DNA of 64,000 nucleotides, from assembly GCF_001610835.1 (NCBI RefSeq), contig NZ_CP011270.1:5288001-5352000 (forward strand), written 5' to 3'. Positions 10,540 to 59,078 of this stretch are shown here, one piece after another (position 1 is the first letter of the stretch; every line of letters starts with the position of its first letter). Both the position numbers and the translations under genes were made by a program. This stretch comes from Planctomyces sp. SH-PL14. GTDB lineage: Bacteria; Planctomycetota; Planctomycetia; Planctomycetales; Planctomycetaceae. The notes beneath the pieces were generated by a model. It was given only the letters and a program-made list of their open reading frames with translations. It was not told the DNA's origin and did no database searches.

Positions 10540-12087
10540 ATGAGTCGATTGACCCATCCCGCTCCGGCCCCTGCTGCTTCTTCCGCCCCGGGGGAAGTTC
10601 CGCCCGGCGACGGCACCCTCACGCAGGTTCAGGAGGAACTCCTCCTGCTTCTGAACGGAGAGGAAACGGCCCCTCCGCCCCGCGCGGCGGTGGTCGAGGC
10701 GCCCCCGCCCCCGGCGCCTCCCGTTCCCGCTCCCGGCGACGCTCCTCCGGAGAAGGCCGCCCGGTCCGGAGCCGCGGGAGCTCAGGATCCCGAGGCCAAG
10801 ACGGAGGGCTGTCCCTCTTGCGGCTTCACCGGCTCGTGGGGGATGGGATCCTGGTGTCCCGAGTGCGGCTACTTCCCGCGCGTCGGACGTCAGGGAGACG
10901 CGATTGAGGCGGCCGACCCGGAAGACGCGCTCCCCCCGACGCTGTGGTCGCTCATCCCCGGATGGATCTGGGCTCTGCTCGGCGGGATGGCCGGGATCAT
11001 GATCGTCAGCGCTTCCATGCCGCTCGTCCTGAAGGACCCGCTGCACCGCGGAGCCGCCGCGGCGGTCCAGCTCGGCATCGGCCTGCTGCTGGGGATCTCT
11101 TCGCAGGTCCGCGCCTTCATCTATGCGATGAAGACGCACGAGCAATACAAGTTCTATGCGATCGTCACCTCGCCGCTCGCCATCTGGAGGGGGCCGATCA
11201 AGCTGTTGCCGCAGACGCGGCCGGTCTTCTTCTGCGCGGCCTGGGGCTGGACGGCGGCGCTCGGCGCCGGTCTGTTCATGGGGCTCCACTGGCCGGTCCT
11301 CTTGAAGGCGTTCCAGGACTACATGGCCGAGGTCCGCAAGGCCGAGGCGCTCAACGTGCTTCCCAAGGAGAGCAAGGACAAAGCGAAGGGGGGGGAGAAG
11401 AAGCCCGGCGAGATGTCGTTCGGCGAGTTCATCGGCGAGATCGGCAAGACGCTGGCTCCCGAGGAAGAGAAGCCGAAGATGAAGTTCAAGGTCAAGAAGG
11501 AGAAGAGCGAGAAGGACATCGACGAACTGATGGAGGATCTCGTCTCCGAAGTCCCGGTCGATATGAAGGACAGCGGCGCGGAAGAGGGTAAGACCGAAGA
11601 CGCGCTCAAGAAGGCCGGGGACGCGGCCAAGAACGCCGAAGAGGCGGCCAAGGGAGCAGGGGATGCCGCTGAAGGAAAGGATGGAGAGTCCGGGGATGAG
11701 CAGAACCCCGCGGACGATGAACCGACGGGGCAGCGGTGCCTGATCATCGGCTACACCGCGAACGCCTCGGGCGAAGTCCGCTCGCTCCTTGTCGCGGTCC
11801 CGCTCAAGGACGGAAAGCTGCGGTTCGCCGCCAAGCTGCCGCTCGACTCGCTGACCAATCGCGATCTCGCCGAGCTCCGCAAGGTGCTGGCCAAGATCCG
11901 CACCAAGAGCCCGGCCACCCCCTGTCCTTACGGCGGGGTCTGGGTTCGGCCGGTCCTGCAGTGCCACGTGGAGCATGACGGCTGGACATCGGACGGCCGC
12001 CTCCGGTCTCCCAATGTGGAAGAGCTCGTGATCGAGCGGACCGAGATTCGCGAACGCTCGGCCTCCCGGACGCCGACGCTCCGCTGA
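10540..12087 (+). CDS. Zn-ribbon membrane protein of unknown function
   Basis: A 515-residue protein not recognised as a named family. An Ala/Pro-rich N-terminus is followed by a CxxC...CxxC zinc ribbon (CPSCGF and WCPECGY, about 91-112). Three hydrophobic segments follow: LIPGWIWALLGGMAGIMIVS, AVQLGIGLLLGISSQ and FFCAAWGWTAALGAGLFMG. A long Lys/Glu/Ala-rich stretch (about 265-390) is probably coiled coil. The C-terminal domain (about 395-500) is soluble. Likely an inner-membrane protein with a large soluble part. A 68-bp gap separates it from the glycosyltransferase gene, so they may be co-transcribed. Confidence 0.75.
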   Translation: MSRLTHPAPAPAASSAPGEVPPGDGTLTQVQEELLLLLNGEETAPPPRAAVVEAPPPPAPPVPAPGDAPPEKAARSGAAGAQDPEAKTEGCPSCGFTGSWGMGSWCPECGYFPRVGRQGDAIEAADPEDALPPTLWSLIPGWIWALLGGMAGIMIVSASMPLVLKDPLHRGAAAAVQLGIGLLLGISSQVRAFIYAMKTHEQYKFYAIVTSPLAIWRGPIKLLPQTRPVFFCAAWGWTAALGAGLFMGLHWPVLLKAFQDYMAEVRKAEALNVLPKESKDKAKGGEKKPGEMSFGEFIGEIGKTLAPEEEKPKMKFKVKKEKSEKDIDELMEDLVSEVPVDMKDSGAEEGKTEDALKKAGDAAKNAEEAAKGAGDAAEGKDGESGDEQNPADDEPTGQRCLIIGYTANASGEVRSLLVAVPLKDGKLRFAAKLPLDSLTNRDLAELRKVLAKIRTKSPATPCPYGGVWVRPVLQCHVEHDGWTSDGRLRSPNVEELVIERTEIRERSASRTPTLR

Positions 12088-51638: not shown

Positions 51639-53246
51639 CTAACTCTCTTCCGAAACGCCTCGCCGCGTCACCGTCCCCCAGCTCAGGCCGAACCGGGCGA
51701 GATATTTTCGTAGGCGGTCTGCGTCGTTGGGCATGGCTTTCTGTTTCCGCGAGACGGCGAACAGCGTTCGTCCCGCCTCGGAGAGCGAGGAGCACTGGCG
51801 GCAGACGCCGATGACCGCGGCAAGCTGGGCCCGGTCGAAGAGGTCGAGGGTCTCGATCTGGTCCGCGGTCAGGACCTCGTCCAGGCAGCCAGCATTCGTG
51901 TCGTCGTCCTGGCCTCCCCAGGCGGTTTGAAGCCGGCCAATCTCGTCGTCGACTTCCCGGATTGTCACCCGCCCCTGCTCGGCGAGCGTCGCCATGCGGG
52001 TCACGCAGGCGTTGAGGTCGCGAAAGTTGGCGGACCAAAGGGCCGCGGGGGACTCGGCGAAGGCGAGGAACCGGCGGCGGGCCTCCTTGTTGATCGTCAC
52101 CTTCCGGCCGGTCGCCGAGGCGAAGCGTTCCAGCTCGTAGTCCAGGTTCGGCTCGATGTCTTCGCGGCGGTCCCGCAGGCCGGGGAGGCAAAAGGTCCAG
52201 AGGTTGATCCGGGCCAGGAGGTCTTCGCGAAAGGTCCGCTCGCGGACGCAGGCCCGCAGGTCGCGGTTGGTGCCGGCGATGAGCTGGAAGTTGCTGGCGA
52301 CCTCGGTGTCGGAGCCGACGGGAAGAAACCGCTTCTCCTCGATCGCCCGCAGGAGCATCGCCTGCTCGTCGAGGCCAAGCTCGCCGATCTCGTCCAGAAA
52401 CAGCAGCCCCTCGTTGGCGGACTGCAGCAAGCCGCGGCGGGCTCCAGCGGAACCGGTGAAGGCCCCCTTGGCGTGTCCGAAGAGGGCCGACATCGCCTGA
52501 TCGCCCCGGAGTGTGGCGCAGTTCACCTCGACCATCTCGCCGCGGAGTTGCTCGCGCTGCCGCTTGAGCTCGTAGATCCGCCGCGCGAGCTGGGACTTGC
52601 CGGCCCCGGTGGGCCCGGTGATGAGGAGCGGGGCGGTGCTCGCGATCGCCACGACCTCGATCTGTTCGATCAGGGCGTTGAACCGCGCATTGCGGGTCTC
52701 GATCCCCGACTTGAGGAACGACCGGGCCTCTCGCCGCTCCTGCGAGAACCGTTTCGCGAGGGCGTCGTACTTCGAGAGGTCGAGGTCGATGATCCGGTAT
52801 CGCCCGCCGCCGATCTGGTTTCGGGGCGGGGGGGAGGTCTGGACGAGCCGGGCCGGGATGTGGCGGGACTCGGCGAGGAGGAACAGGCAGATCTGTTCGA
52901 CGTGGGTCCCGGTCGTGATGTGGACGAGGTAGTTCTCGTCCTCGACCCGGAACGGGTAGCGGCGGGCGAACTCGTGGAGGCGGCCGAAGACTTCGTCGAA
53001 GTCCCACGGGTCGGAGAGCGAGAGCTCGTGGACCTGGACTTTGGTTTCCGGGGCGACGACCGCGATGTCGCCGGCGACGAGGTCGGCCAGCTCCCGGTCG
53101 CGGGGGTCGTAGAGGAGCTCGAAGCGGTCGACGAGCAGTTCTTCGTGCTGGCAGAGGCTGACGCTCGGCCGCCAGCGGTGCCAGCGGTCTTCGCCGCGGC
53201 CGGAGTCGAGGTTGGTGCCCAGGATTCCGAGGAGGACGTTCCGCAT
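51639..53246 (-). CDS. rtcR: Sigma-54-dependent regulator of RNA repair, RtcR
   Basis: A 535-residue activator of rtc operons. The N-terminal CARF-type domain (about 1-180) includes NVLLGILGTNLDSG and YLVHITTGTHVEQICLFLLAE, as in RtcR, where it senses an RNA-derived ligand. The AAA+ domain has Walker A GPTGAGKS (211-218), the sigma-54-contacting loop GAFTGS (261-266), Walker B LLFLDE (281-286) and LRDRREDIEPNL. A C-terminal HTH segment is about 485-530 (SEAGRTLFAVSRKQKAMPND). It is divergent from rsr, whose upstream region has a sigma-54 promoter. That makes it the likely switch for rsr, the Y RNAs, rtcB and rtcA. Confidence 0.95.
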   Translation of the reverse strand: MRNVLLGILGTNLDSGRGEDRWHRWRPSVSLCQHEELLVDRFELLYDPRDRELADLVAGDIAVVAPETKVQVHELSLSDPWDFDEVFGRLHEFARRYPFRVEDENYLVHITTGTHVEQICLFLLAESRHIPARLVQTSPPPRNQIGGGRYRIIDLDLSKYDALAKRFSQERREARSFLKSGIETRNARFNALIEQIEVVAIASTAPLLITGPTGAGKSQLARRIYELKRQREQLRGEMVEVNCATLRGDQAMSALFGHAKGAFTGSAGARRGLLQSANEGLLFLDEIGELGLDEQAMLLRAIEEKRFLPVGSDTEVASNFQLIAGTNRDLRACVRERTFREDLLARINLWTFCLPGLRDRREDIEPNLDYELERFASATGRKVTINKEARRRFLAFAESPAALWSANFRDLNACVTRMATLAEQGRVTIREVDDEIGRLQTAWGGQDDDTNAGCLDEVLTADQIETLDLFDRAQLAAVIGVCRQCSSLSEAGRTLFAVSRKQKAMPNDADRLRKYLARFGLSWGTVTRRGVSEES

Positions 53247-53280
53247 CGGGTGTGTTCGCTGGAGGGTGGTCGAACCGCAT

Positions 53281-53592
53281 ACCTGCCGGCACGACGTTGT
53301 TTGCTCAAACCCAACGTGCCACGGCCACTGGGGTCAAGGGGGCCTCGCCCCCTTGCCGCCGGAGGCACTTCCATGAGGAACCGTGGGGCACAACGGACTT
53401 CCGCTTTGTGGAACCGGCGTTGAGGACTCACCGCTCCCTTTGCACTCCCCGCGGGTTGGTGAGGGGGCATCCGGCACGGCGTCCGCGCTTGGACACGCCC
53501 TCCTTCAGACATCTCTCGACGAGACAAGCCTCCGGCGGGCAAGAGGCATTCTGCCCCCTGCACCCCCTGACCAGGGTGCCCCTGGACCCGGT
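53281..53592 (-). repeat. Repeat family B, full copy 9
   Basis: Reverse copy inserted between rtcR and the sigma-54 promoter of rsr. Hairpin II reads AGGGGGCA-GAA-TGCCTCTT, with several arm changes that keep pairing. The element stops about 210 bp short of the promoter. Confidence 0.9.
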
Positions 53593-53670
53593 TGGCCAGG
53601 CTTGGGGTGAACACCAATCGGCGAATGGAACCATTCCGTGTCGGCCGAGACTTAGGATAACACGTGCGAT

Positions 53671-53709
53671 ACGGAAAGATAAACAGGATATCAAAAGATT
53701 ATTTCCGTT
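53671..53709 (+). promoter_or_regulatory. Possible upstream activator site for RtcR
   Basis: Inverted repeat ACGGAAA...TTTCCGT with 25 bp between the arms, about 95-130 bp upstream of the sigma-54 promoter. That is a normal place for an enhancer site, but the assignment is only by position and symmetry. Confidence 0.3.
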
Positions 53710-53802
53710 GGCATGGTGAACCGCCGGCCGTATCACCCGCCTGTGCCTCTAATCATGAATTGAAAAGGAGTTACAGAAATCCACCCGTTAGGATTCATCG
53801 AA

Positions 53803-53818
53803 TGGCACGCGACGAGCT
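53803..53818 (+). promoter_or_regulatory. Sigma-54 promoter for rsr-Y RNA-rtcBA
   Basis: TGGCACGCGACGAGCT has the -24 GG (53804-53805) and -12 GC (53816-53817) exactly 10 bp apart. The TGGCACG half matches the consensus fully. It lies 49 bp before the rsr ATG, downstream of the divergent rtcR. Confidence 0.85.
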
Positions 53819-53866
53819 TTCTCCTGATCCCATCAAACCACAAGCAGTTGTTGTGAGGAGAACCCG

Positions 53867-55456
53867 ATGGCCAGCAAGTCCCTGTTCCAGTCGATTCGCG
53901 GAAAACTGCTCCCCAAGACAGACGCCGTCAACGAGACGGGAGCGGCCGCCTACGCCCTCGAGCCGACCCAGGCTCTCGCCCACTTTGCCGCGACCGGCTG
54001 CCTGAACGCGACGTTCTACGCCGGAGCCGAAGCACAGCTCGATCAGGTCCTGAAGCTCTGCGAAAAAGTCCCGCCGGAATTCATCGCCCGCGTGGCCCTC
54101 TTCGCCCGGAACCGCGGCTACATGAAGGACATGCCGGCCCTGCTGTGCGCCGTCCTCTCCGTGAAGTCGCCCGGCCTCCTGGCGGAGATCTTCGATCGCG
54201 TGATCGACTCCCCCAAGATGCTCCGGAACTTCGTCCAGATCATGCGGTCAGGAGCCGTCGGCCGGAAGAGCCTTGGAACGCTCCCCAAGCGGCTCGTTCT
54301 TCAATGGCTGGAGAACCGCTCGGACGAGCAACTGTTCACCGGCTCGGTCGGCAACGATCCGTCGCTGGCGGACGTGATCAAGATGGTCCACCCCAAGCCG
54401 GCGTCCCCCTCGCGGGCGGCGCTGTACGGATACCTCCTGGGCAAGGACCACGACGCCGAGGCGTTGCCGGACCTCATCCGCGAGTACGAGAAATTCCGGC
54501 GGAACACGAACCCCGGCAAGGTGCCGGTGCCGAATGTGCCGTTCCAACTCCTGACCAGCCTCCCCCTCGTGGAGAAGGACTGGAAGGAGATCGCCCGGAA
54601 CGGCTCGTGGCAGATGACCCGGATGAACCTGAACACGTTTCAGCGACACCGTGTCTTCGCGGATGACGACCTTGTGAAGCTCATCGCCAACCGCCTGCGG
54701 AACGAGCGGCTGATCAAGGAGGCGAAGGTTTTCCCCTATCAGCTCATGGCCGCCCACCGGAACATCTGGAGTGAGATCCCCTGGGCGATCAGCGAGGCGC
54801 TGCAGGACGCAATGGAGATCGCGATCAGCAACGTGCCGCACCTCCCCGGCAAGGTGTATGTGTTCCCGGACATCTCGGGTTCGATGCACTCGCCGGTGAC
54901 CGGTCAGCGGGGGAACGGCGGCGGAACGTCGAAGGTCCGGTGCGTGGACGTCGCGGCCCTCGTGGCGGCGGCGATCCTGCGGCGGAACCCCACGGCGGAA
55001 GTCATTCCGTTCGAGTCCGACGTCGTGACCTGCAAGCTCAACCCGCGGGACTCGGTGATGACGAACGCCGAGCGGCTGTCGTCGCTCCCCTGCGGGGGAA
55101 CGAACTGCAGCGCTCCGCTGCGGCACCTCAACGCCCGCAAGGCGAAGGGGGACCTGCTCGTCTACGTTTCGGACAACGAGTCTTGGCTGGACTCGCCGCA
55201 CTACGGCCGGTTCGGCGGCGGCGCGACCGAGACGGTCCGGGAATGGCAGCAGTTCCAGTCCCGCAGCCCCGGAGCGAAGATGATCTGCATCGACATCCAG
55301 CCCTACGCGACCGTGCAGGCCCCCGACCGAACGGCCGGGGACATCACGAACGTAGCGGGCTTCAGTGACCAGGTCTTCCAGCTCATCGCGGACATCGCGA
55401 CGACCGGACCCGACCGGGAGCACTGGACCCGCCAGATCGAGCAGATGAAGTTGTGA
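53867..55456 (+). CDS. rsr: Ro60-family TROVE domain protein (Rsr)
   Basis: A 529-residue ring-shaped RNA-binding protein orthologous to animal Ro60. The TROVE HEAT-repeat domain covers about 20-325 (TQALAHFAATGCLNATFY, FIARVALFARNRGYMKDMP, FQRHRVFADDDLVKLIANRL). The vWA domain (about 328-515) has an intact MIDAS, DISGS at 335-339, with later T and D residues. Ro60 proteins bind Y RNAs on the outer surface and the ends of misfolded or damaged RNA in the ring. AGGAG lies 8 bases before the ATG. The RNAs encoded just downstream are its probable ligands. Confidence 0.96.
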   Translation: MASKSLFQSIRGKLLPKTDAVNETGAAAYALEPTQALAHFAATGCLNATFYAGAEAQLDQVLKLCEKVPPEFIARVALFARNRGYMKDMPALLCAVLSVKSPGLLAEIFDRVIDSPKMLRNFVQIMRSGAVGRKSLGTLPKRLVLQWLENRSDEQLFTGSVGNDPSLADVIKMVHPKPASPSRAALYGYLLGKDHDAEALPDLIREYEKFRRNTNPGKVPVPNVPFQLLTSLPLVEKDWKEIARNGSWQMTRMNLNTFQRHRVFADDDLVKLIANRLRNERLIKEAKVFPYQLMAAHRNIWSEIPWAISEALQDAMEIAISNVPHLPGKVYVFPDISGSMHSPVTGQRGNGGGTSKVRCVDVAALVAAAILRRNPTAEVIPFESDVVTCKLNPRDSVMTNAERLSSLPCGGTNCSAPLRHLNARKAKGDLLVYVSDNESWLDSPHYGRFGGGATETVREWQQFQSRSPGAKMICIDIQPYATVQAPDRTAGDITNVAGFSDQVFQLIADIATTGPDREHWTRQIEQMKL

Positions 55457-55459
55457 GGG

Positions 55460-55531
55460 AGTCGTCAGTGATCAGTTTTCAGTTGTCAGTCCGGAGGACT
55501 CCCTCTGGCTGACGACTGAGAACTGAAAACT
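55460..55531. repeat. Inverted-repeat hairpin between rsr and the first Y RNA
   Basis: Arms AGTCGTCAG (55460-55468) with CTGACGACT (55509-55517), and AGTTTTCAGTT (55474-55484) with AACTGAAAACT (55521-55531). The pairings compete, so two structures are possible. No T-run, so read-through to the RNA array is possible; it could guide processing. Confidence 0.6.
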
Positions 55532-55540
55532 GACAACTCC

Positions 55541-55686
55541 ACCGAATCCACGCCGAATGCCAGTGGGACTACATAACCGTAGTGTTGCGGGTTCGAATCC
55601 CGTCACGCTTCGCAAGAGGCGTGTAGCTCAATCCGGTTAGAGCATACGACCCTTGTCTCACGATTCCTTGTCGGTGCGGTTTTCGA
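55541..55686 (+). ncRNA. Y-RNA-like element 1, with full permuted tRNA module
   Basis: About 146 nt. The terminal helix pairs 55541-55555 with 55672-55686 (12 of 15 positions paired). The 5' signature AATGC-N4-GGGACTACAT is at 55556-55574, and the 3' signature CCTTGT precedes the returning strand. The tRNA-like part runs in permuted order. The T arm is 55587-55603 (loop TTCGAAT). The acceptor 3' strand 55604-55610 pairs with 55617-55623 over 7 bp, closed by the loop CGCAAG. TA at the U8/R9 position is followed by the D arm 55626-55643 with GG in its loop. The short helix TACG/CGTA occupies the anticodon-stem position. Confidence 0.88.
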
Positions 55687-55720
55687 TCATCGACCACAGA
55701 CCAACCCACAGAGGCGGGCA

Positions 55721-55793
55721 ACGCGGTTCGAATGCTGTTGGGACTACATTTTCTCAATGTGCGCGTCTCAGCAAACCCCTCGTCGAACCGCGT
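55721..55793 (+). ncRNA. Y-RNA-like element 2, minimal, no tRNA module
   Basis: About 73 nt. A perfect 10-bp terminal helix pairs ACGCGGTTCG (55721-55730) with CGAACCGCGT (55784-55793). The signature AATGC-N4-GGGACTACAT lies at 55731-55749 and CCTCGT just before the returning strand. The interior holds only a small hairpin ACATT/AATGT, with no T or D arm. It looks like the Ro60-binding part of a Y RNA on its own. Confidence 0.8.
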
Positions 55794-55825
55794 CTCCGTC
55801 CGCACGTGCCATTGAACATCGATCC

Positions 55826-55919
55826 ACATCCGTGAATGCCGTTGGGAGTACATGGTTCCGCCGGTTCAACTCCGGTAACCGCGCAAGCGGCTTCTCTCAG
55901 CACCTCTTGTCACGGATGT
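55826..55919 (+). ncRNA. Y-RNA-like element 3, T arm and acceptor only
   Basis: About 94 nt. A perfect 9-bp terminal helix pairs ACATCCGTG (55826-55834) with CACGGATGT (55911-55919). AATGC-N4-GGGAGTACAT is at 55835-55853 and CTCTTGT just before the returning strand. A good T arm follows (55860-55876, loop TTCAACT), then an acceptor-like stem CCGC/GCGG capped by a GCAA tetraloop. There is no recognisable D arm, so the tRNA module is incomplete. Confidence 0.8.
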
Positions 55920-55953
55920 TTTGAACACGGTTTCCTTTCGAGTCCCTTTCCCC

Positions 55954-56142
55954 GGAGCGAACATCCCTCGTCACGAATGCAGATGGAACTACATGGTTAA
56001 GGACCCGGAAGTCGTGGGTTCGAGTCCCACCGGCTCCACTCTCGTGAGCTGTCGATCGACAGCTCTTCAGGGGCCGTAGCTCAGTGGCCAGAGCGCCGTA
56101 AACGTTTCGTCGATCCTCGTCGTGACTGAGGATGTTCGCTCC
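55954..56142 (+). ncRNA. Y-RNA-like element 4, with full permuted tRNA module
   Basis: About 189 nt. The terminal helix is the longest: 13 perfect pairs (55954-55966 with 56130-56142), then GTCACG/CGTGAC. AATGC-N4-GGAACTACAT is at 55976-55994 and CCTCGT precedes the returning strand. The T arm is 56014-56030 (loop TTCGAGT). The acceptor strands 56031-56037 and 56070-56076 pair over 7 bp, and the D arm is 56079-56094. The acceptor end is closed by an extra perfect hairpin, arms GAGCTGTC/GACAGCTC around GATC (56046-56065). Confidence 0.9.
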
Positions 56143-56191
56143 CGCGAGATAGACTGTCAGCCCAAGCACCTTCGACCCCCAAGCCCCATCC

Positions 56192-56367
56192 GGAAGGAAA
56201 ATCCCTCATCACGAATGCGGACGGAACTACATGGTCTCCAAAACCCGAGGTCGTGGGTTCGAATCCCACCGGCTCCACTTTCGAGTTCTCACTCGGAGCC
56301 GTAGCTCAGCCTGGTAGAGCGCGAAAACGTTTCGTCAATTCTTGTCGTGATGACGGATCTTCATTCC
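56192..56367 (+). ncRNA. Y-RNA-like element 5, with full permuted tRNA module
   Basis: About 176 nt. The terminal helix pairs 56192-56213 with 56346-56367, 19 of 22 positions. AATGC-N4-GGAACTACAT is at 56214-56232 and TCTTGT precedes the returning strand. The T arm is 56253-56269 (loop TTCGAAT). The acceptor CGGCTCC/GGAGCCG (56270-56276 and 56295-56301) is a perfect 7 bp, and the D arm is 56304-56320. It shares AAACGTTTCGTC with element 4. Its 3' strand ends 22 bp before the rtcB ATG. Confidence 0.9.
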
Positions 56368-56389
56368 TCTGATCAAACCCTTCTCAATC

Positions 56390-57877
56390 ATGCTTCCTGA
56401 AACCATTGTCCCCACGGGGGACGCAACAGCTCTCCTTCCCACGGGGACGAAAGTTCCGCCCATCACGGTCATCGGCACCGAGGCGATCCGCGGGACCTTT
56501 GACGAAAAATGCCTCCAGCAGGCGATCAACTCCCGGCTTGCTCCGGGGGTCACGGATCTGGTCCTCAATCCCGATGCCCACTGCGGCTACGGGGCGCCGG
56601 TCGGGTGCGTGCTGGTCTCGCCTTCGCACGTCTATCCGGGGCCGGTCGGTGTCGACATCAAGTGCTCGATGAGCCTCCTGCAGCTCGACCTGCCGGCCGA
56701 TCAGATCATCGACCGGCCGACCCGGCGGGCGATCATCAACGCCATCTGCGAGCGAACGCCGACCGGCGCCGGACGCGGACAGCGGCACGCCAAGAAGTCC
56801 CGCTTCGTCGATGAAACGCTCGGCCGCCAGGCGGTGATCGAAGGAGCCTCGGAGTCGGTCTGCACCCAGCTCGGGATTCCGCCCGAGTGGGCGACCCGCT
56901 GCGAGGACTCGTTCCACGTCGGACATGACGGCACGGCGGACGCGCTCGGCCAGCGACTCCAGGGACATCTCGACGGCGGGTTCTTCCGGAACTTCGCCGA
57001 CAAGATCAACCAGCTCGGCTCGTACGGCGGCGGCAACCACTTCGGCGAGTGCGAAGTGGTCCAGATCGCCGACAACGACCGGGCGCGGACGGCGGCCGAG
57101 GTCTTCGGCCTGCGGGACGGGAAGGTCGCGTTCCTGTCGCACTGCGGTTCGCGGGGGATCGGACATAACCTTGCCAGCGGGCAGTTCAAGTCGCTCCAGG
57201 CCAAGTTCGAGAACTGGAGCATCCCGCTTCCCGGCGAGGACCGGGAGCTCGTCTACGCCCCGCTCGGCACCCCCGAGGCGGACGCGTACCTGGACGACAT
57301 GGCCCTCGGGGCGAACTTCGCCACGATCAATCACCTCCTGATCAACGCCCTCGTGCTCGAGGCGTTTCAGGAAGTGATCCCCGGCGTGACGGGGGAGCTG
57401 GTGTACTTCATCAGCCACAACATCGCCCGGCAGGAGATCGTCGGGAACCGGCTGTCGTGGGTGCACCGGAAGGGCTCGACGCGGGCCTTCCCGGGCGGCC
57501 ATCCGGCGCTGAAGGGGACGCTCTACGAGTCGACCGGGCATCCGATCCTGCTGCCCGGGAACCCGCAGGCGGGATCGTGTGTCATGGTGGCGGACGACGG
57601 GGCGGCGCTGAGCTGCTACAGCGTGAACCACGGAGCCGGACGGGTCCTGGGGCGCAAGCGGGCGATCCGCGAACTGGACCAGCGAAGCATCGACCAGTCG
57701 TTCGACGAGCAGGACATCCTGACGAACTGCCGGACCTATCCAAAGGATGAGGCCCCGGCGGCTTACAAGGATTTCAACGAGGTCCTGCGGTCGGTGAACC
57801 AGGCGGGCCTCGCGACCGAAGTCGCGCGGCTCAAGGCCCGGTTCGTCATCAAGGATGGCGACCAGGCGGACGACTGA
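56390..57877 (+). CDS. rtcB: RNA-splicing ligase RtcB
   Basis: A 495-residue GTP- and Mn-dependent ligase that joins 2',3'-cyclic phosphate or 3'-phosphate ends to 5'-OH ends. Metal and active-site motifs are intact: PDAHCGYGAPVG, GVDIKCSM with D89 and C92, GSYGGGNHFGECE, HCGSRGIGH and ISHNIARQE. The histidine that takes GMP is H414 in SVNHGAGR. RtcB heals tRNAs cut in the anticodon loop and other broken RNAs. It follows the Y-RNA array on the same strand and is probably co-transcribed with rsr from the sigma-54 promoter. Confidence 0.97.
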   Translation: MLPETIVPTGDATALLPTGTKVPPITVIGTEAIRGTFDEKCLQQAINSRLAPGVTDLVLNPDAHCGYGAPVGCVLVSPSHVYPGPVGVDIKCSMSLLQLDLPADQIIDRPTRRAIINAICERTPTGAGRGQRHAKKSRFVDETLGRQAVIEGASESVCTQLGIPPEWATRCEDSFHVGHDGTADALGQRLQGHLDGGFFRNFADKINQLGSYGGGNHFGECEVVQIADNDRARTAAEVFGLRDGKVAFLSHCGSRGIGHNLASGQFKSLQAKFENWSIPLPGEDRELVYAPLGTPEADAYLDDMALGANFATINHLLINALVLEAFQEVIPGVTGELVYFISHNIARQEIVGNRLSWVHRKGSTRAFPGGHPALKGTLYESTGHPILLPGNPQAGSCVMVADDGAALSCYSVNHGAGRVLGRKRAIRELDQRSIDQSFDEQDILTNCRTYPKDEAPAAYKDFNEVLRSVNQAGLATEVARLKARFVIKDGDQADD

Positions 57878-57891
57878 CCGACAGGTTGGGC

Positions 57892-57992
57892 AGTTGAAGA
57901 TTAAACACCAAGGCACCAAGGTGGCACCAAGAACACCAAGGATTCTCTTCGGGAAACCTTTGTGGCCTTTGTGCCACCTTGGTGCCTTGGTG
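57892..57992. repeat. ACACCAAGG-type inverted repeat between rtcB and rtcA
   Basis: Long imperfect inverted repeat with arms AAACACCAAGGCACCAAGG and CCTTGGTGCCTTGGTGTTT and further pairing inside. It may shape the transcript between the two repair genes. Confidence 0.8.
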
Positions 57993-58016
57993 TTTAACTT
58001 CCTATGGAGGTGATTG

Positions 58017-59078
58017 ATGGGCGCTGAGTTGGTGACGATCGACGGATCCCAGGGGGAAGGGGGCGGGCAGATCCTGCGCTCGACTCTGGCTCTCTCGCTC
58101 GTCACGCGGCGGCCCGTCCGGATCGAGAACATCCGCGCCGGTCGGCCCAAGCCCGGTCTGATGCGGCAGCACCTGACCGCGGTGCAGGCGGCGGCGCGGA
58201 TCGGATCGGCCGAGGTCACCGGCGCGGAGATCGGCTCCAAGGCGCTCACGTTCGTACCGCAGACGGTCACGCCGGGACGCTACACGTTCAGCGTCGGGAC
58301 GGCGGGGAGCGCGACGCTCGTCCTCCAGACCGTTCTGCCCGCGCTCATGATCGCCGACGGGCCGTCGCAACTGACGCTCGAAGGGGGGACTCACAACCAG
58401 TGGGCGCCGACCTTCGAGTTCCTGAAGCACGCCTATCTGCCGATCGTCAGCCGGATGGGGCCGAAGGTGACCGCTGCGCTCGAACGCCACGGCTTTCACC
58501 CGGCGGGGGGCGGGCGGTTCCAGGTCGAGATCGAGCCGGTCCCGCGGCTGAAGCCGCTCGATCTTCTCGAACGGGGCGAGCTGAAGAACCGGTCGGCCTC
58601 GGCGGTCGTGGCGAACCTTCCCGGGCATATTGGCGACCGCGAGGTGACGACGATCCTGGACCGGCTGAACTGGCCTCCGACGAACAGTCTCGTCGAGGTC
58701 GTTCCGGCTCACGGGCCGGGGAACGTCGTCTTTGCGACGCTGGAGTATGAGCACGTCACCGAGGTCTTTACGGGCTTCGGGCGGGTCGGGGCGAGCGCGG
58801 AGCATGTCGCGAACGAGGTGGTCCGGGATGTCCGGAACTACCTCCGGAGCGAGACGCCGGTCGGTCATTACCTGGCGGACCAGATCCTGCTGCCGCAGGG
58901 GCTCTGTGCGTATCAGTCCCGGCTCGATGGTGAGCCCGGTCGTTCGTCGTTTGCGACGGGACCGCTGACCCGCCACGGCATCACGCACATCGAGATCCTC
59001 CGCAAGCTGCTCGATCTGCAGATCACGGTGGAGGACCGTCCCGACCGGGCGCTCCACGTCGTCACGGTCGGTCCGTAG
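58017..59078 (+). CDS. rtcA: RNA 3'-terminal phosphate cyclase
   Basis: A 353-residue enzyme that turns an RNA 3'-phosphate into a 2',3'-cyclic phosphate with ATP, through a histidine-AMP intermediate. The start at 58017 follows GGAGGT. Motifs are DGSQGEGGGQILRS, RAGRPKPGLMRQHLTAV, EGGTHNQWAPTFEFL, HPAGGGRF and ADQILLPQG. The C-terminal RHGITHIEILRKLL carries the expected histidine. It completes the rtcR / rsr-Y RNA-rtcB-rtcA locus, which ends here. Confidence 0.96.
   Translation: MGAELVTIDGSQGEGGGQILRSTLALSLVTRRPVRIENIRAGRPKPGLMRQHLTAVQAAARIGSAEVTGAEIGSKALTFVPQTVTPGRYTFSVGTAGSATLVLQTVLPALMIADGPSQLTLEGGTHNQWAPTFEFLKHAYLPIVSRMGPKVTAALERHGFHPAGGGRFQVEIEPVPRLKPLDLLERGELKNRSASAVVANLPGHIGDREVTTILDRLNWPPTNSLVEVVPAHGPGNVVFATLEYEHVTEVFTGFGRVGASAEHVANEVVRDVRNYLRSETPVGHYLADQILLPQGLCAYQSRLDGEPGRSSFATGPLTRHGITHIEILRKLLDLQITVEDRPDRALHVVTVGP

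What the first reader, a model, noticed from the sequence alone, without database searches (positions are those of the whole stretch)
51639..59078. Complete RNA-repair locus: rtcR, sigma-54 promoter, rsr, five Y-RNA-like elements, rtcB, rtcA
The sequence shows intact RtcR (CARF plus AAA+ with GAFTGS), a divergent GG-N10-GC promoter, a Ro60 protein with MIDAS, five structured RNAs, then RtcB and RtcA with intact active sites. Similar rsr-yrlA/yrlB-rtcBA operons are known in enterobacteria, with one or two Y RNAs. Here the RNA part has expanded to five. I infer a damage-inducible unit that senses broken RNA, sorts it with Rsr and its Y RNAs, and reseals it.
Basis: partly seen in the sequence, partly recalled or inferred. 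Interest (0 to 1): 0.93.

Follow-up and report, generated by a model that had tools for sequence, protein, structure and literature searches.

The report
RNA-repair operon with five Y RNAs
A planctomycete-like bacterium carries a complete gene set for sensing and mending broken RNA together with five small, partly tRNA-shaped RNAs built on one shared handle; relatives show that such RNA arrays are usual, and hint that damaged tRNA is what they deal with.

Summary
In detail: intact rtcR, a conserved sigma-54 site, a divergent rsr (Ro60), five Y-RNA elements, rtcB and rtcA. Three elements match Rfam YrlA (one over the gathering score) and one matches YrlB weakly; the fifth (55828-55917) has no Rfam match but scores 48.6 bits with a model built without the window. 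The claim of an expansion does not hold: of 80 relatives, 65 have two to five elements downstream of rsr. What stands out is the make-up of the arrays: plain hairpins, T-arm-only minihelices and permuted-tRNA YrlA on one Rsr-type stem, often in that order; the window's last two elements are duplicates. Second finding: the same Rsr-Y module lies with RtcR or, without RtcR (17 Acidobacteriota, 1 Myxococcota), beside 6-32 tRNA genes; 0 of 51 loci with RtcR and 18 of 25 without have five or more upstream tRNA genes, though few of these changes are independent. This fits a tRNA-damage response, mended by RtcBA or bypassed with spare tRNAs. Function is inferred. The main Y RNA papers were not readable, so priority is uncertain.

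The parts
51639..53246 (-). rtcR, CARF-AAA+ sigma-54 activator
   Evidence: NF038308 816 bits, cut-off 650; PF06956 and PF00158; 62.7% to E. coli RtcR
53290..53600 (.). dispersed ~300 bp repeat in the rtcR-rsr spacer (not part of the mechanism)
53666..53683 (.). degenerate candidate RtcR site (GATA half-sites)
   Evidence: best match to the palindrome found in relatives, 2.9 bits, within the range of shuffles
53803..53818 (+). sigma-54 type site TGGCACGCGACGAGCT, beginning 64 bases before the rsr start codon
   Evidence: same distance in L034
53867..55456 (+). rsr, divergent Ro60/TROVE-vWA protein
55549..55678 (+). Y RNA 1, YrlA type (T arm, acceptor, D arm), box GAC
   Evidence: RF02553 61.9 bits; detector; 7-pair acceptor possible, though the minimum-energy fold shows T and D arms and both Y stems but not the acceptor stem (z -2.0)
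55724..55790 (+). Y RNA 2, hairpin type (YrlB-like), box GAC
   Evidence: RF02565 34.3 bits; held-out model 47.5 bits; fold z -3.4
55828..55917 (+). Y RNA 3, T arm plus a short second hairpin, no D arm, box GAG
   Evidence: no Rfam match at E up to 5; held-out model 48.6 bits; fold z -2.4
55969..56127 (+). Y RNA 4, YrlA type, box AAC, 7-pair acceptor stem
   Evidence: RF02553 60.0 bits; fold z -2.25
56207..56352 (+). Y RNA 5, YrlA type, box AAC, duplicate of Y RNA 4
   Evidence: RF02553 73.4 bits, gathering score 69; 118 of 141 aligned bases equal to element 4; fold z -2.9
56390..57877 (+). rtcB, RNA ligase
   Evidence: PF01139 334 bits; D, C, N, H, H, H, H positions aligned with E. coli RtcB
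57902..57996 (.). dispersed inverted repeat in the rtcB-rtcA spacer
   Evidence: 87 matches in the own genome including itself, many of them the two strands of one place
58017..59078 (+). rtcA, RNA 3'-phosphate cyclase
   Evidence: TIGR03399 360 bits, cut-off 250; 147 of 332 aligned residues equal to E. coli RtcA, the His of the C-terminal motif aligned

Best explanation
It is a tRNA-damage response operon. [quoted passage not shown] the parts are shown). RtcA and RtcB heal and seal cleaved ends (known chemistry; active sites shown). Every Y RNA carries the same Rsr-type stem (shown by covariation; binding inferred), so Rsr can be loaded with one of several heads: a bare hairpin, a T-arm minihelix or a permuted tRNA elbow. 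I infer that the heads dock Rsr onto different tRNA-acting partners, PNPase among them, so that broken tRNA is passed to decay or to repair. In relatives without RtcR the same Rsr-Y module often lies beside a large tRNA gene set, which suggests replacement of damaged tRNA in place of regulated repair.
For: Intact genes and active sites. rtcR, rsr, Y elements, rtcB and rtcA recur together in relatives labelled as several phyla; 41 of 51 named loci with RtcR also show RtcA in the held DNA. Conserved sigma-54 site. Stem: 95.3% of 512 cells paired, 13 of 16 pairs with a change on both sides, slid controls 32-60% (these rows had been picked by pairing). Pairing-blind test: 5 or 6 of 6 stem-1 pairs in 194 of 242 elements, against 42 on average and 56 at most in 200 permutations. 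Head type, box and order go together. RtcR and tRNA arrays exclude each other: 0 of 51 against 18 of 25, and in 7 of 7 further loci. Published: RtcR ligand is tRNA fragments (PMC7790460, passages); in Anabaena one repressor holds down both rtcB and a 26-tRNA operon, freed under translational stress (PMC10272220, passages).
Against: No expression, binding or substrate data for this organism. The RtcR-or-array pattern rests on few independent changes: 4 independent pairs on supported branches of the Rsr tree, none going the other way, but the sign test is not significant (median p 0.5). 8 of the 18 array loci also carry an RtcB of another lineage, so repair and replacement are not clean alternatives, and 7 of 25 loci without RtcR have no array. 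L106 counts as an array with only 6 spread-out tRNAs. Salmonella YrlA was not cut by the RecA-dependent nuclease (PMC7790460). The candidate RtcR site is degenerate in the window and a repeat lies next to it. No control was run for how often such loci have tRNA arrays by chance.
Confidence: 0.6

Rival explanations
1. Dosage only: the array gives more copies of one Y RNA function (gating or tethering Rsr); differences between heads are drift.
For: Elements 4 and 5 are duplicates (118 of 141). Copy number varies, 1 to 7 downstream of rsr in the 74 of 80 loci with any.
Against: Head type goes with the box: GAG box YrlA in 1 of 36, AAC box YrlA in 73 of 98 (window included; loci are related, so not independent). 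Order is kept: in 15 of 17 loci with both (window included) the last AAC-YrlA follows the last GAG element. L034, the nearest relative by the tree, reads Y-h-t-Y like the window's Y-h-t-Y-Y.
Confidence: 0.17
2. Decoys: tRNA-like heads compete with tRNA for a tRNA-cutting toxin or nuclease.
For: Linkage to tRNA arrays in relatives and on viral contigs with Rsr, where 21 of 46 hold five or more tRNA genes in the held DNA (no control, some contigs are near-copies). Two Acidobacteriota loci carry a Y RNA with D, anticodon-like and T arms. Named as a possibility for YrlA (PMC7790460).
Against: No anticodon arm is apparent in the five heads of the window. Decoys do not explain elements without a recognised tRNA arm, 102 of 297.
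Confidence: 0.12
3. The Rsr-Y part serves RNA decay with PNPase (RYPER) and merely shares a promoter with the ligase genes.
For: PNPase is in the genome; RYPER is described for Deinococcus, and Rsr-YrlA binds PNPase in Salmonella (PMC8394870, PMC4987338, passages).
Against: Repeated linkage of Rsr-Y with RtcR or with tRNA arrays is not expected of a general decay machine.
Confidence: 0.1
4. The elements are decayed tRNA genes or chance folds.
For: T-arm and D-arm stretches are strongly tRNA-like; ARAGORN calls no tRNA in the window.
Against: Covariation; 246 downstream elements against 4 on the minus strands and 3 in one shuffle of each of 80 loci; held-out model E about 1e-13 for elements 2 and 3.
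Confidence: 0.01

Closest known systems
Salmonella rsr-yrlBA-rtcBA operon with RtcR (PMC7790460, PMC9879122, PMC4987338; passages seen)
   Same: Gene order, divergent RtcR, sigma-54 control, Y RNAs between rsr and rtcB
   Different: Five Y RNAs of three head types here, two Y RNAs in Salmonella; Rsr far below the NCBIfam Rsr cut-off (57 against 900 bits)
YrlA and YrlB Y RNAs (Rfam RF02553, RF02565)
   Same: Stem with GAAUGC and UUGUC boxes; T arm, acceptor and D arm in permuted order
   Different: Element 3 has a T arm and a short hairpin only and matches neither family; element 2 is far below the YrlB gathering score
Deinococcus Rsr-Y RNA-PNPase particle (RYPER; PMC8394870, passages seen)
   Same: Ro60-type protein (2nvo, E 2e-13), Y RNAs, PNPase in the genome
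   Different: Linked here to RtcR and RtcBA; tethering not tested
tRNA array operons (Anabaena trn, PMC10272220; mycobacterial tRNA array units, PMC12803027; passages seen)
   Same: Large extra tRNA sets; Anabaena trn shares a repressor with rtcB
   Different: In the relatives here the array lies directly upstream of rsr and Y RNAs; the words Ro60 and TROVE occur in neither paper's main text

Membership tests
RtcR | full-length match to the RtcR equivalog model | tested here: met
   816 bits, cut-off 650
RtcR | activation by tRNA fragments with cyclic phosphate | not testable with these tools
   shown in Salmonella (PMC7790460)
Ro60/TROVE-vWA | TROVE and Ro60 vWA domains over Pfam cut-offs | tested here: met
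   29.4 against 23 and 59.9 against 27.7 bits
NCBIfam Rsr equivalog NF041674 | score over cut-off 900 | tested here: not met
   57.1 bits; not filed as this equivalog
YrlA RNA (RF02553) | gathering score 69 bits | tested here: inconclusive
   element 5 met (73.4); elements 1 and 4 below (61.9, 60.0) at E 3e-12 and 9e-12
YrlA RNA (RF02553) | T arm, acceptor, D arm order inside the Rsr-type stem | tested here: met
   elements 1, 4, 5, each with seven possible acceptor pairs; for element 1 the minimum-energy fold lacks the acceptor
YrlB RNA (RF02565) | gathering score 97 bits | tested here: not met
   element 2: 34.3 bits, E 8e-4; called YrlB-like only
bacterial Y RNA in the wide sense | conserved Rsr-binding type stem, encoded next to rsr | tested here: met
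   five of five elements by the detector; elements 2 and 3 also by the held-out model, elements 1, 4, 5 by Rfam
bacterial Y RNA in the wide sense | binding to Rsr | not testable with these tools
   needs CLIP or gel shift
rsr-yrl-rtcBA RNA repair operon | divergent RtcR, sigma-54 site, rsr, Y RNA, rtcB, rtcA in order | tested here: met
rsr-yrl-rtcBA RNA repair operon | co-transcription and RtcR-dependent induction | not testable with these tools
   needs RNA-seq and mutants
RtcB ligase | metal and guanylylation residues | tested here: met
   D, C, N, H, H, H, H aligned with E. coli (residue numbers recalled)
RtcA cyclase | equivalog score and catalytic His | tested here: met
   360 against 250 bits; His aligned (its role is recalled)
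RYPER | Rsr tethered to PNPase by a Y RNA | not testable with these tools
   PNPase gene present, nothing more

The most novel reading that the evidence does not exclude
Bacterial Ro60 with a set of Y RNAs is the core of a general tRNA-damage system: one constant protein, interchangeable RNA heads that each imitate a different part of tRNA (elbow, T-arm minihelix, and in two Acidobacteriota loci a D-anticodon-T body), and a swappable remedy, either RtcR-controlled RtcBA repair or a stand-by tRNA gene set that replaces what was cut. Viral contigs, probably of large phages, carry the module too.
Probability: 0.3. Interest if true: 0.85.

Novelty: new variant of a known kind. Interest (0 to 1): 0.6.

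Why it matters
What bacterial Ro60 and its Y RNAs do is an open question. Arrays of different tRNA-part mimics on one stem give testable units (one head, one partner). The either-or linkage to RtcR or to tRNA arrays makes tRNA damage the hypothesis to test, and the record titles name relatives, some with strain designations that suggest culture (Brevifollis gellanilyticus, Chthoniobacter flavus, Duganella), in which to test it.

Tried and rejected
A rule that pairs each 5' box with the nearest 3' box without regard to pairing picks a wrong, nearer 3' box for window elements 1, 4 and 5 (0, 2 and 0 of 6 pairs); kept only as a control over all loci. The first detector missed elements, many of them in Verrucomicrobia, and was replaced. 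Models R1 and R2 find only the short elements 2 and 3 properly, because their loop was made short; elements 1, 4 and 5 rest on Rfam and the detector. Elements 2 and 3 were in R1's own training set, hence R2. Over one family R1 rings in 12 of 170 genomes, an undercount for the same reason; Rsr rings in 53 of those 170. R1 and R2 also hit 11754-11799 (20 bits), stem 1 only, taken as chance.

Alanine identity (G3:U70) in element 4: among 92 YrlA with an acceptor stem of six or more pairs, 3:70 is G:C 37, G:U 21, A:U 14, others 20, so no general rule; dropped.

The T-only class depends on my D-arm pattern, which can miss odd D arms; a few detected elements are false (for instance one of 244 bases within the rtcR gene of L037) and some overlap (L075, L108). 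Sigma-70 promoters: none found; four terminator-like sites against 4.5 in shuffles.

The D-anticodon-T reading of the two Acidobacteriota elements: the minimum-energy fold shows the three arms for L050 but not for L052.

Claims about print rest on searches. Chen 2014, Wang 2018, Sim and Wolin 2018, Sim 2020, Burroughs and Aravind 2016 and Santamaria-Gomez 2021 are not held, so I cannot say that arrays, the T-arm class or the tRNA-array linkage are unpublished.
Full report
OBSERVATION. The four proteins are real and intact. RtcR scores 816 bits with its equivalog model (cut-off 650) and shares 331 of 528 aligned residues with E. coli RtcR. RtcB and RtcA keep the residues recalled as catalytic. 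Rsr is distant from the named Rsr group (57 bits, cut-off 900) though over the Pfam cut-offs for TROVE and Ro60 vWA; its best solved match is Deinococcus Rsr 2nvo, where D-x-S-x-S, T and D of the MIDAS line up.

THE FIVE RNAs. Rfam gives three YrlA and one weak YrlB. A detector that asks for GAATGC, a paired upper stem and a paired GTC box finds five elements in the window and none on its minus strand. Element 3 matches no Rfam family at E up to 5, but a covariance model trained on 27 elements of other genomes scores it 48.6 bits, E 5e-14. All five fold better than most shuffles (z -2.0 to -3.4; 0 to 5 of 200 shuffles fold as well). Elements 1, 4 and 5 can form permuted tRNA elbows with seven acceptor pairs; for element 1 the minimum-energy fold lacks the acceptor stem. 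Element 2 is a plain hairpin; element 3 has a T arm and a short second hairpin but no D arm. Elements 4 and 5 agree at 118 of 141 aligned bases.

RELATIVES. One scan of genome contigs gave 274 relatives, of which the best 80 were kept; all 80 were examined. On them the detector finds 246 elements downstream of rsr and 46 elsewhere on the same strand, against 4 on the minus strands and 3 in one shuffle of each locus (913,490 bases). A sequence-only 5' box occurs 228 times downstream, 34 times upstream and never on the minus strand. Downstream of rsr there are one element in 7 loci, two in 15, three in 13, four in 28, five in 9, six in 1, seven in 1 and none in 6 of the 80 (some contigs end just after rsr). 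Five is therefore ordinary. With upstream elements, L048 has 7 and L086 has 9.

STEM. On 32 chosen elements, 95.3% of 512 cells pair and 13 of 16 pairs show changes on both sides; partners slid by 1-3 columns pair in 32-60%. These rows had been selected by pairing. In the pairing-blind control, 194 of 242 elements have at least 5 of 6 stem-1 pairs; permutations give 42 on average and 56 at most.

HEADS AND ORDER. Of 297 elements (292 in the 80 loci, 5 in the window): T-acceptor-D 111, no recognised tRNA arm 102, T arm only 77, D only 5, D-anticodon-T 2. The three bases before the TAC box go with the head: GAG 1 YrlA of 36, AAC 73 YrlA of 98. In 15 of 17 loci with both, window included, the last AAC-YrlA lies after the last GAG element; in 37 of 53 loci with three or more elements, window included, the last is YrlA. 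The window reads Y-h-t-Y-Y, its nearest relative L034 Y-h-t-Y. Loci are related, so these counts are not independent.

CONTROL REGION. In 52 rtcR-rsr spacers (51 relatives and the window) TGGCACG is the most enriched 7-mer, 39 against 1.75 expected, and the best sigma-54-like site begins 48-95 bases before the end of the rsr start codon in 44 of 52 (the consensus and its weights are recalled and mine). The window's own score is reached by 23 of 200 shuffles. A palindrome TATC-N6-GATA, picked out afterwards from the ranking, occurs in 17 of 52 spacers against none in three shuffles, in 14 of these 17 about 174-215 bases upstream, and in some loci two sites lie about 20 bases apart. It is a candidate RtcR site, which a 2016 review lists as not known (PMC4987338, passages). 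In the window it is degenerate, and a ~300 bp genomic repeat lies beside it. rpoN is present once.

REPAIR OR REPLACE. ARAGORN was run on all 80 named loci. Four loci with little upstream DNA and no RtcR were dropped (L045, L066, L072, L081). Of the 76 left, 0 of 51 with RtcR and 18 of 25 without RtcR have five or more tRNA genes upstream of rsr, up to 32 (17 Acidobacteriota; L106, Myxococcota, has only 6). RtcA is found in 41 of 51 RtcR loci and in 0 of 18 array loci; RtcB of another lineage (26-32% identical) in 8 of 18. The array label needs 6 changes on the Rsr tree, at least 5 forced by well-supported branches, but a test on independent pairs has only 4 pairs (none going the other way) and is not significant. 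A draw of 396 genomes of L094's phylum gave 14 close relatives besides L094's own genome; 13 were fetched (one, cut by its contig, was left); 6 repeat named loci and 7 are new: 3 with 15-20 tRNA genes in the stretch and no RtcR, 4 with RtcR and no tRNA gene. Seven array genomes hold 50-65 tRNA matches in all, which would fit an extra set but was not resolved gene by gene. Among 46 viral contigs with Rsr, 0 have RtcR, 21 have five or more tRNAs in the held DNA, 31 have a detected Y element and one has nine; some contigs are near-copies, and there was no control.

LITERATURE. RtcR senses tRNA fragments and the role of Rsr and Y RNA is left open (PMC7790460, passages). YrlA carries tRNA modifications and tethers PNPase (PMC8394870, passages). 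Anabaena TrcR represses both rtcB and a 26-tRNA operon (PMC10272220, passages). Phage tRNAs evade tRNA-cutting defences (PMC10264068, title and abstract start; PMC11555353, abstract start on retrons and other defences; listing). Two mycobacterial tRNA-array papers do not hold the word Ro60. Jumbo phages with TROVE proteins are noted in PMC7824862 (passages).

VERDICT. A confirmed, complete locus of the RtcR-rsr-Y-rtcBA operon type, with an array of three head types that appears common among its relatives and is only partly covered by Rfam. The most valuable lead is the either-or linkage of the Rsr-Y module to RtcR or to tRNA arrays.

Noticed in passing
   Followed up: partly
55455-55545 and 57895-58000: Two further dispersed inverted repeats, 24 and 87 matches in the genome including themselves, one between rsr and the Y array and one between rtcB and rtcA; they give the miRNA-model hits.
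   Followed up: partly
L080, L091, L092, L094, L099 and 13 other loci: 6 to 32 tRNA genes upstream of rsr where RtcR is missing.
   Followed up: partly
L050:7837-7952, L052:4475-4590: Y RNA whose head reads as D arm, anticodon-type arm and T arm in normal tRNA order; ARAGORN calls it tRNA-Ser and tRNA-Leu though only 75 bases long. The minimum-energy fold shows the arms for L050 only.
   Followed up: partly
L051:5434, L067:7684, L095:7920, L100:8072: ARAGORN calls tRNA-Arg(acg) inside the rsr-rtcB gap of four RtcR loci.
   Followed up: no
L165, L190, L191 (viral contigs): Rsr with 9, 7 and 7 Y elements on viral contigs; the last two look like near-copies.
   Followed up: no
rtcR-rsr spacers of relatives: Palindrome TATC-N6-GATA, a candidate RtcR operator.
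   Followed up: partly
L019-L033: A second Rsr lineage (44-48% identical) in the same family with no rtcR, rtcB, rtcA or detected Y element in the held DNA (at most about 1.5 kb each side); YrlA matches lie a few hundred bases upstream of rsr in some genomes, such as G024.
   Followed up: no
L078:9995-12208: RtcB reading frame split by another ORF, perhaps an intein or homing gene.
   Followed up: no
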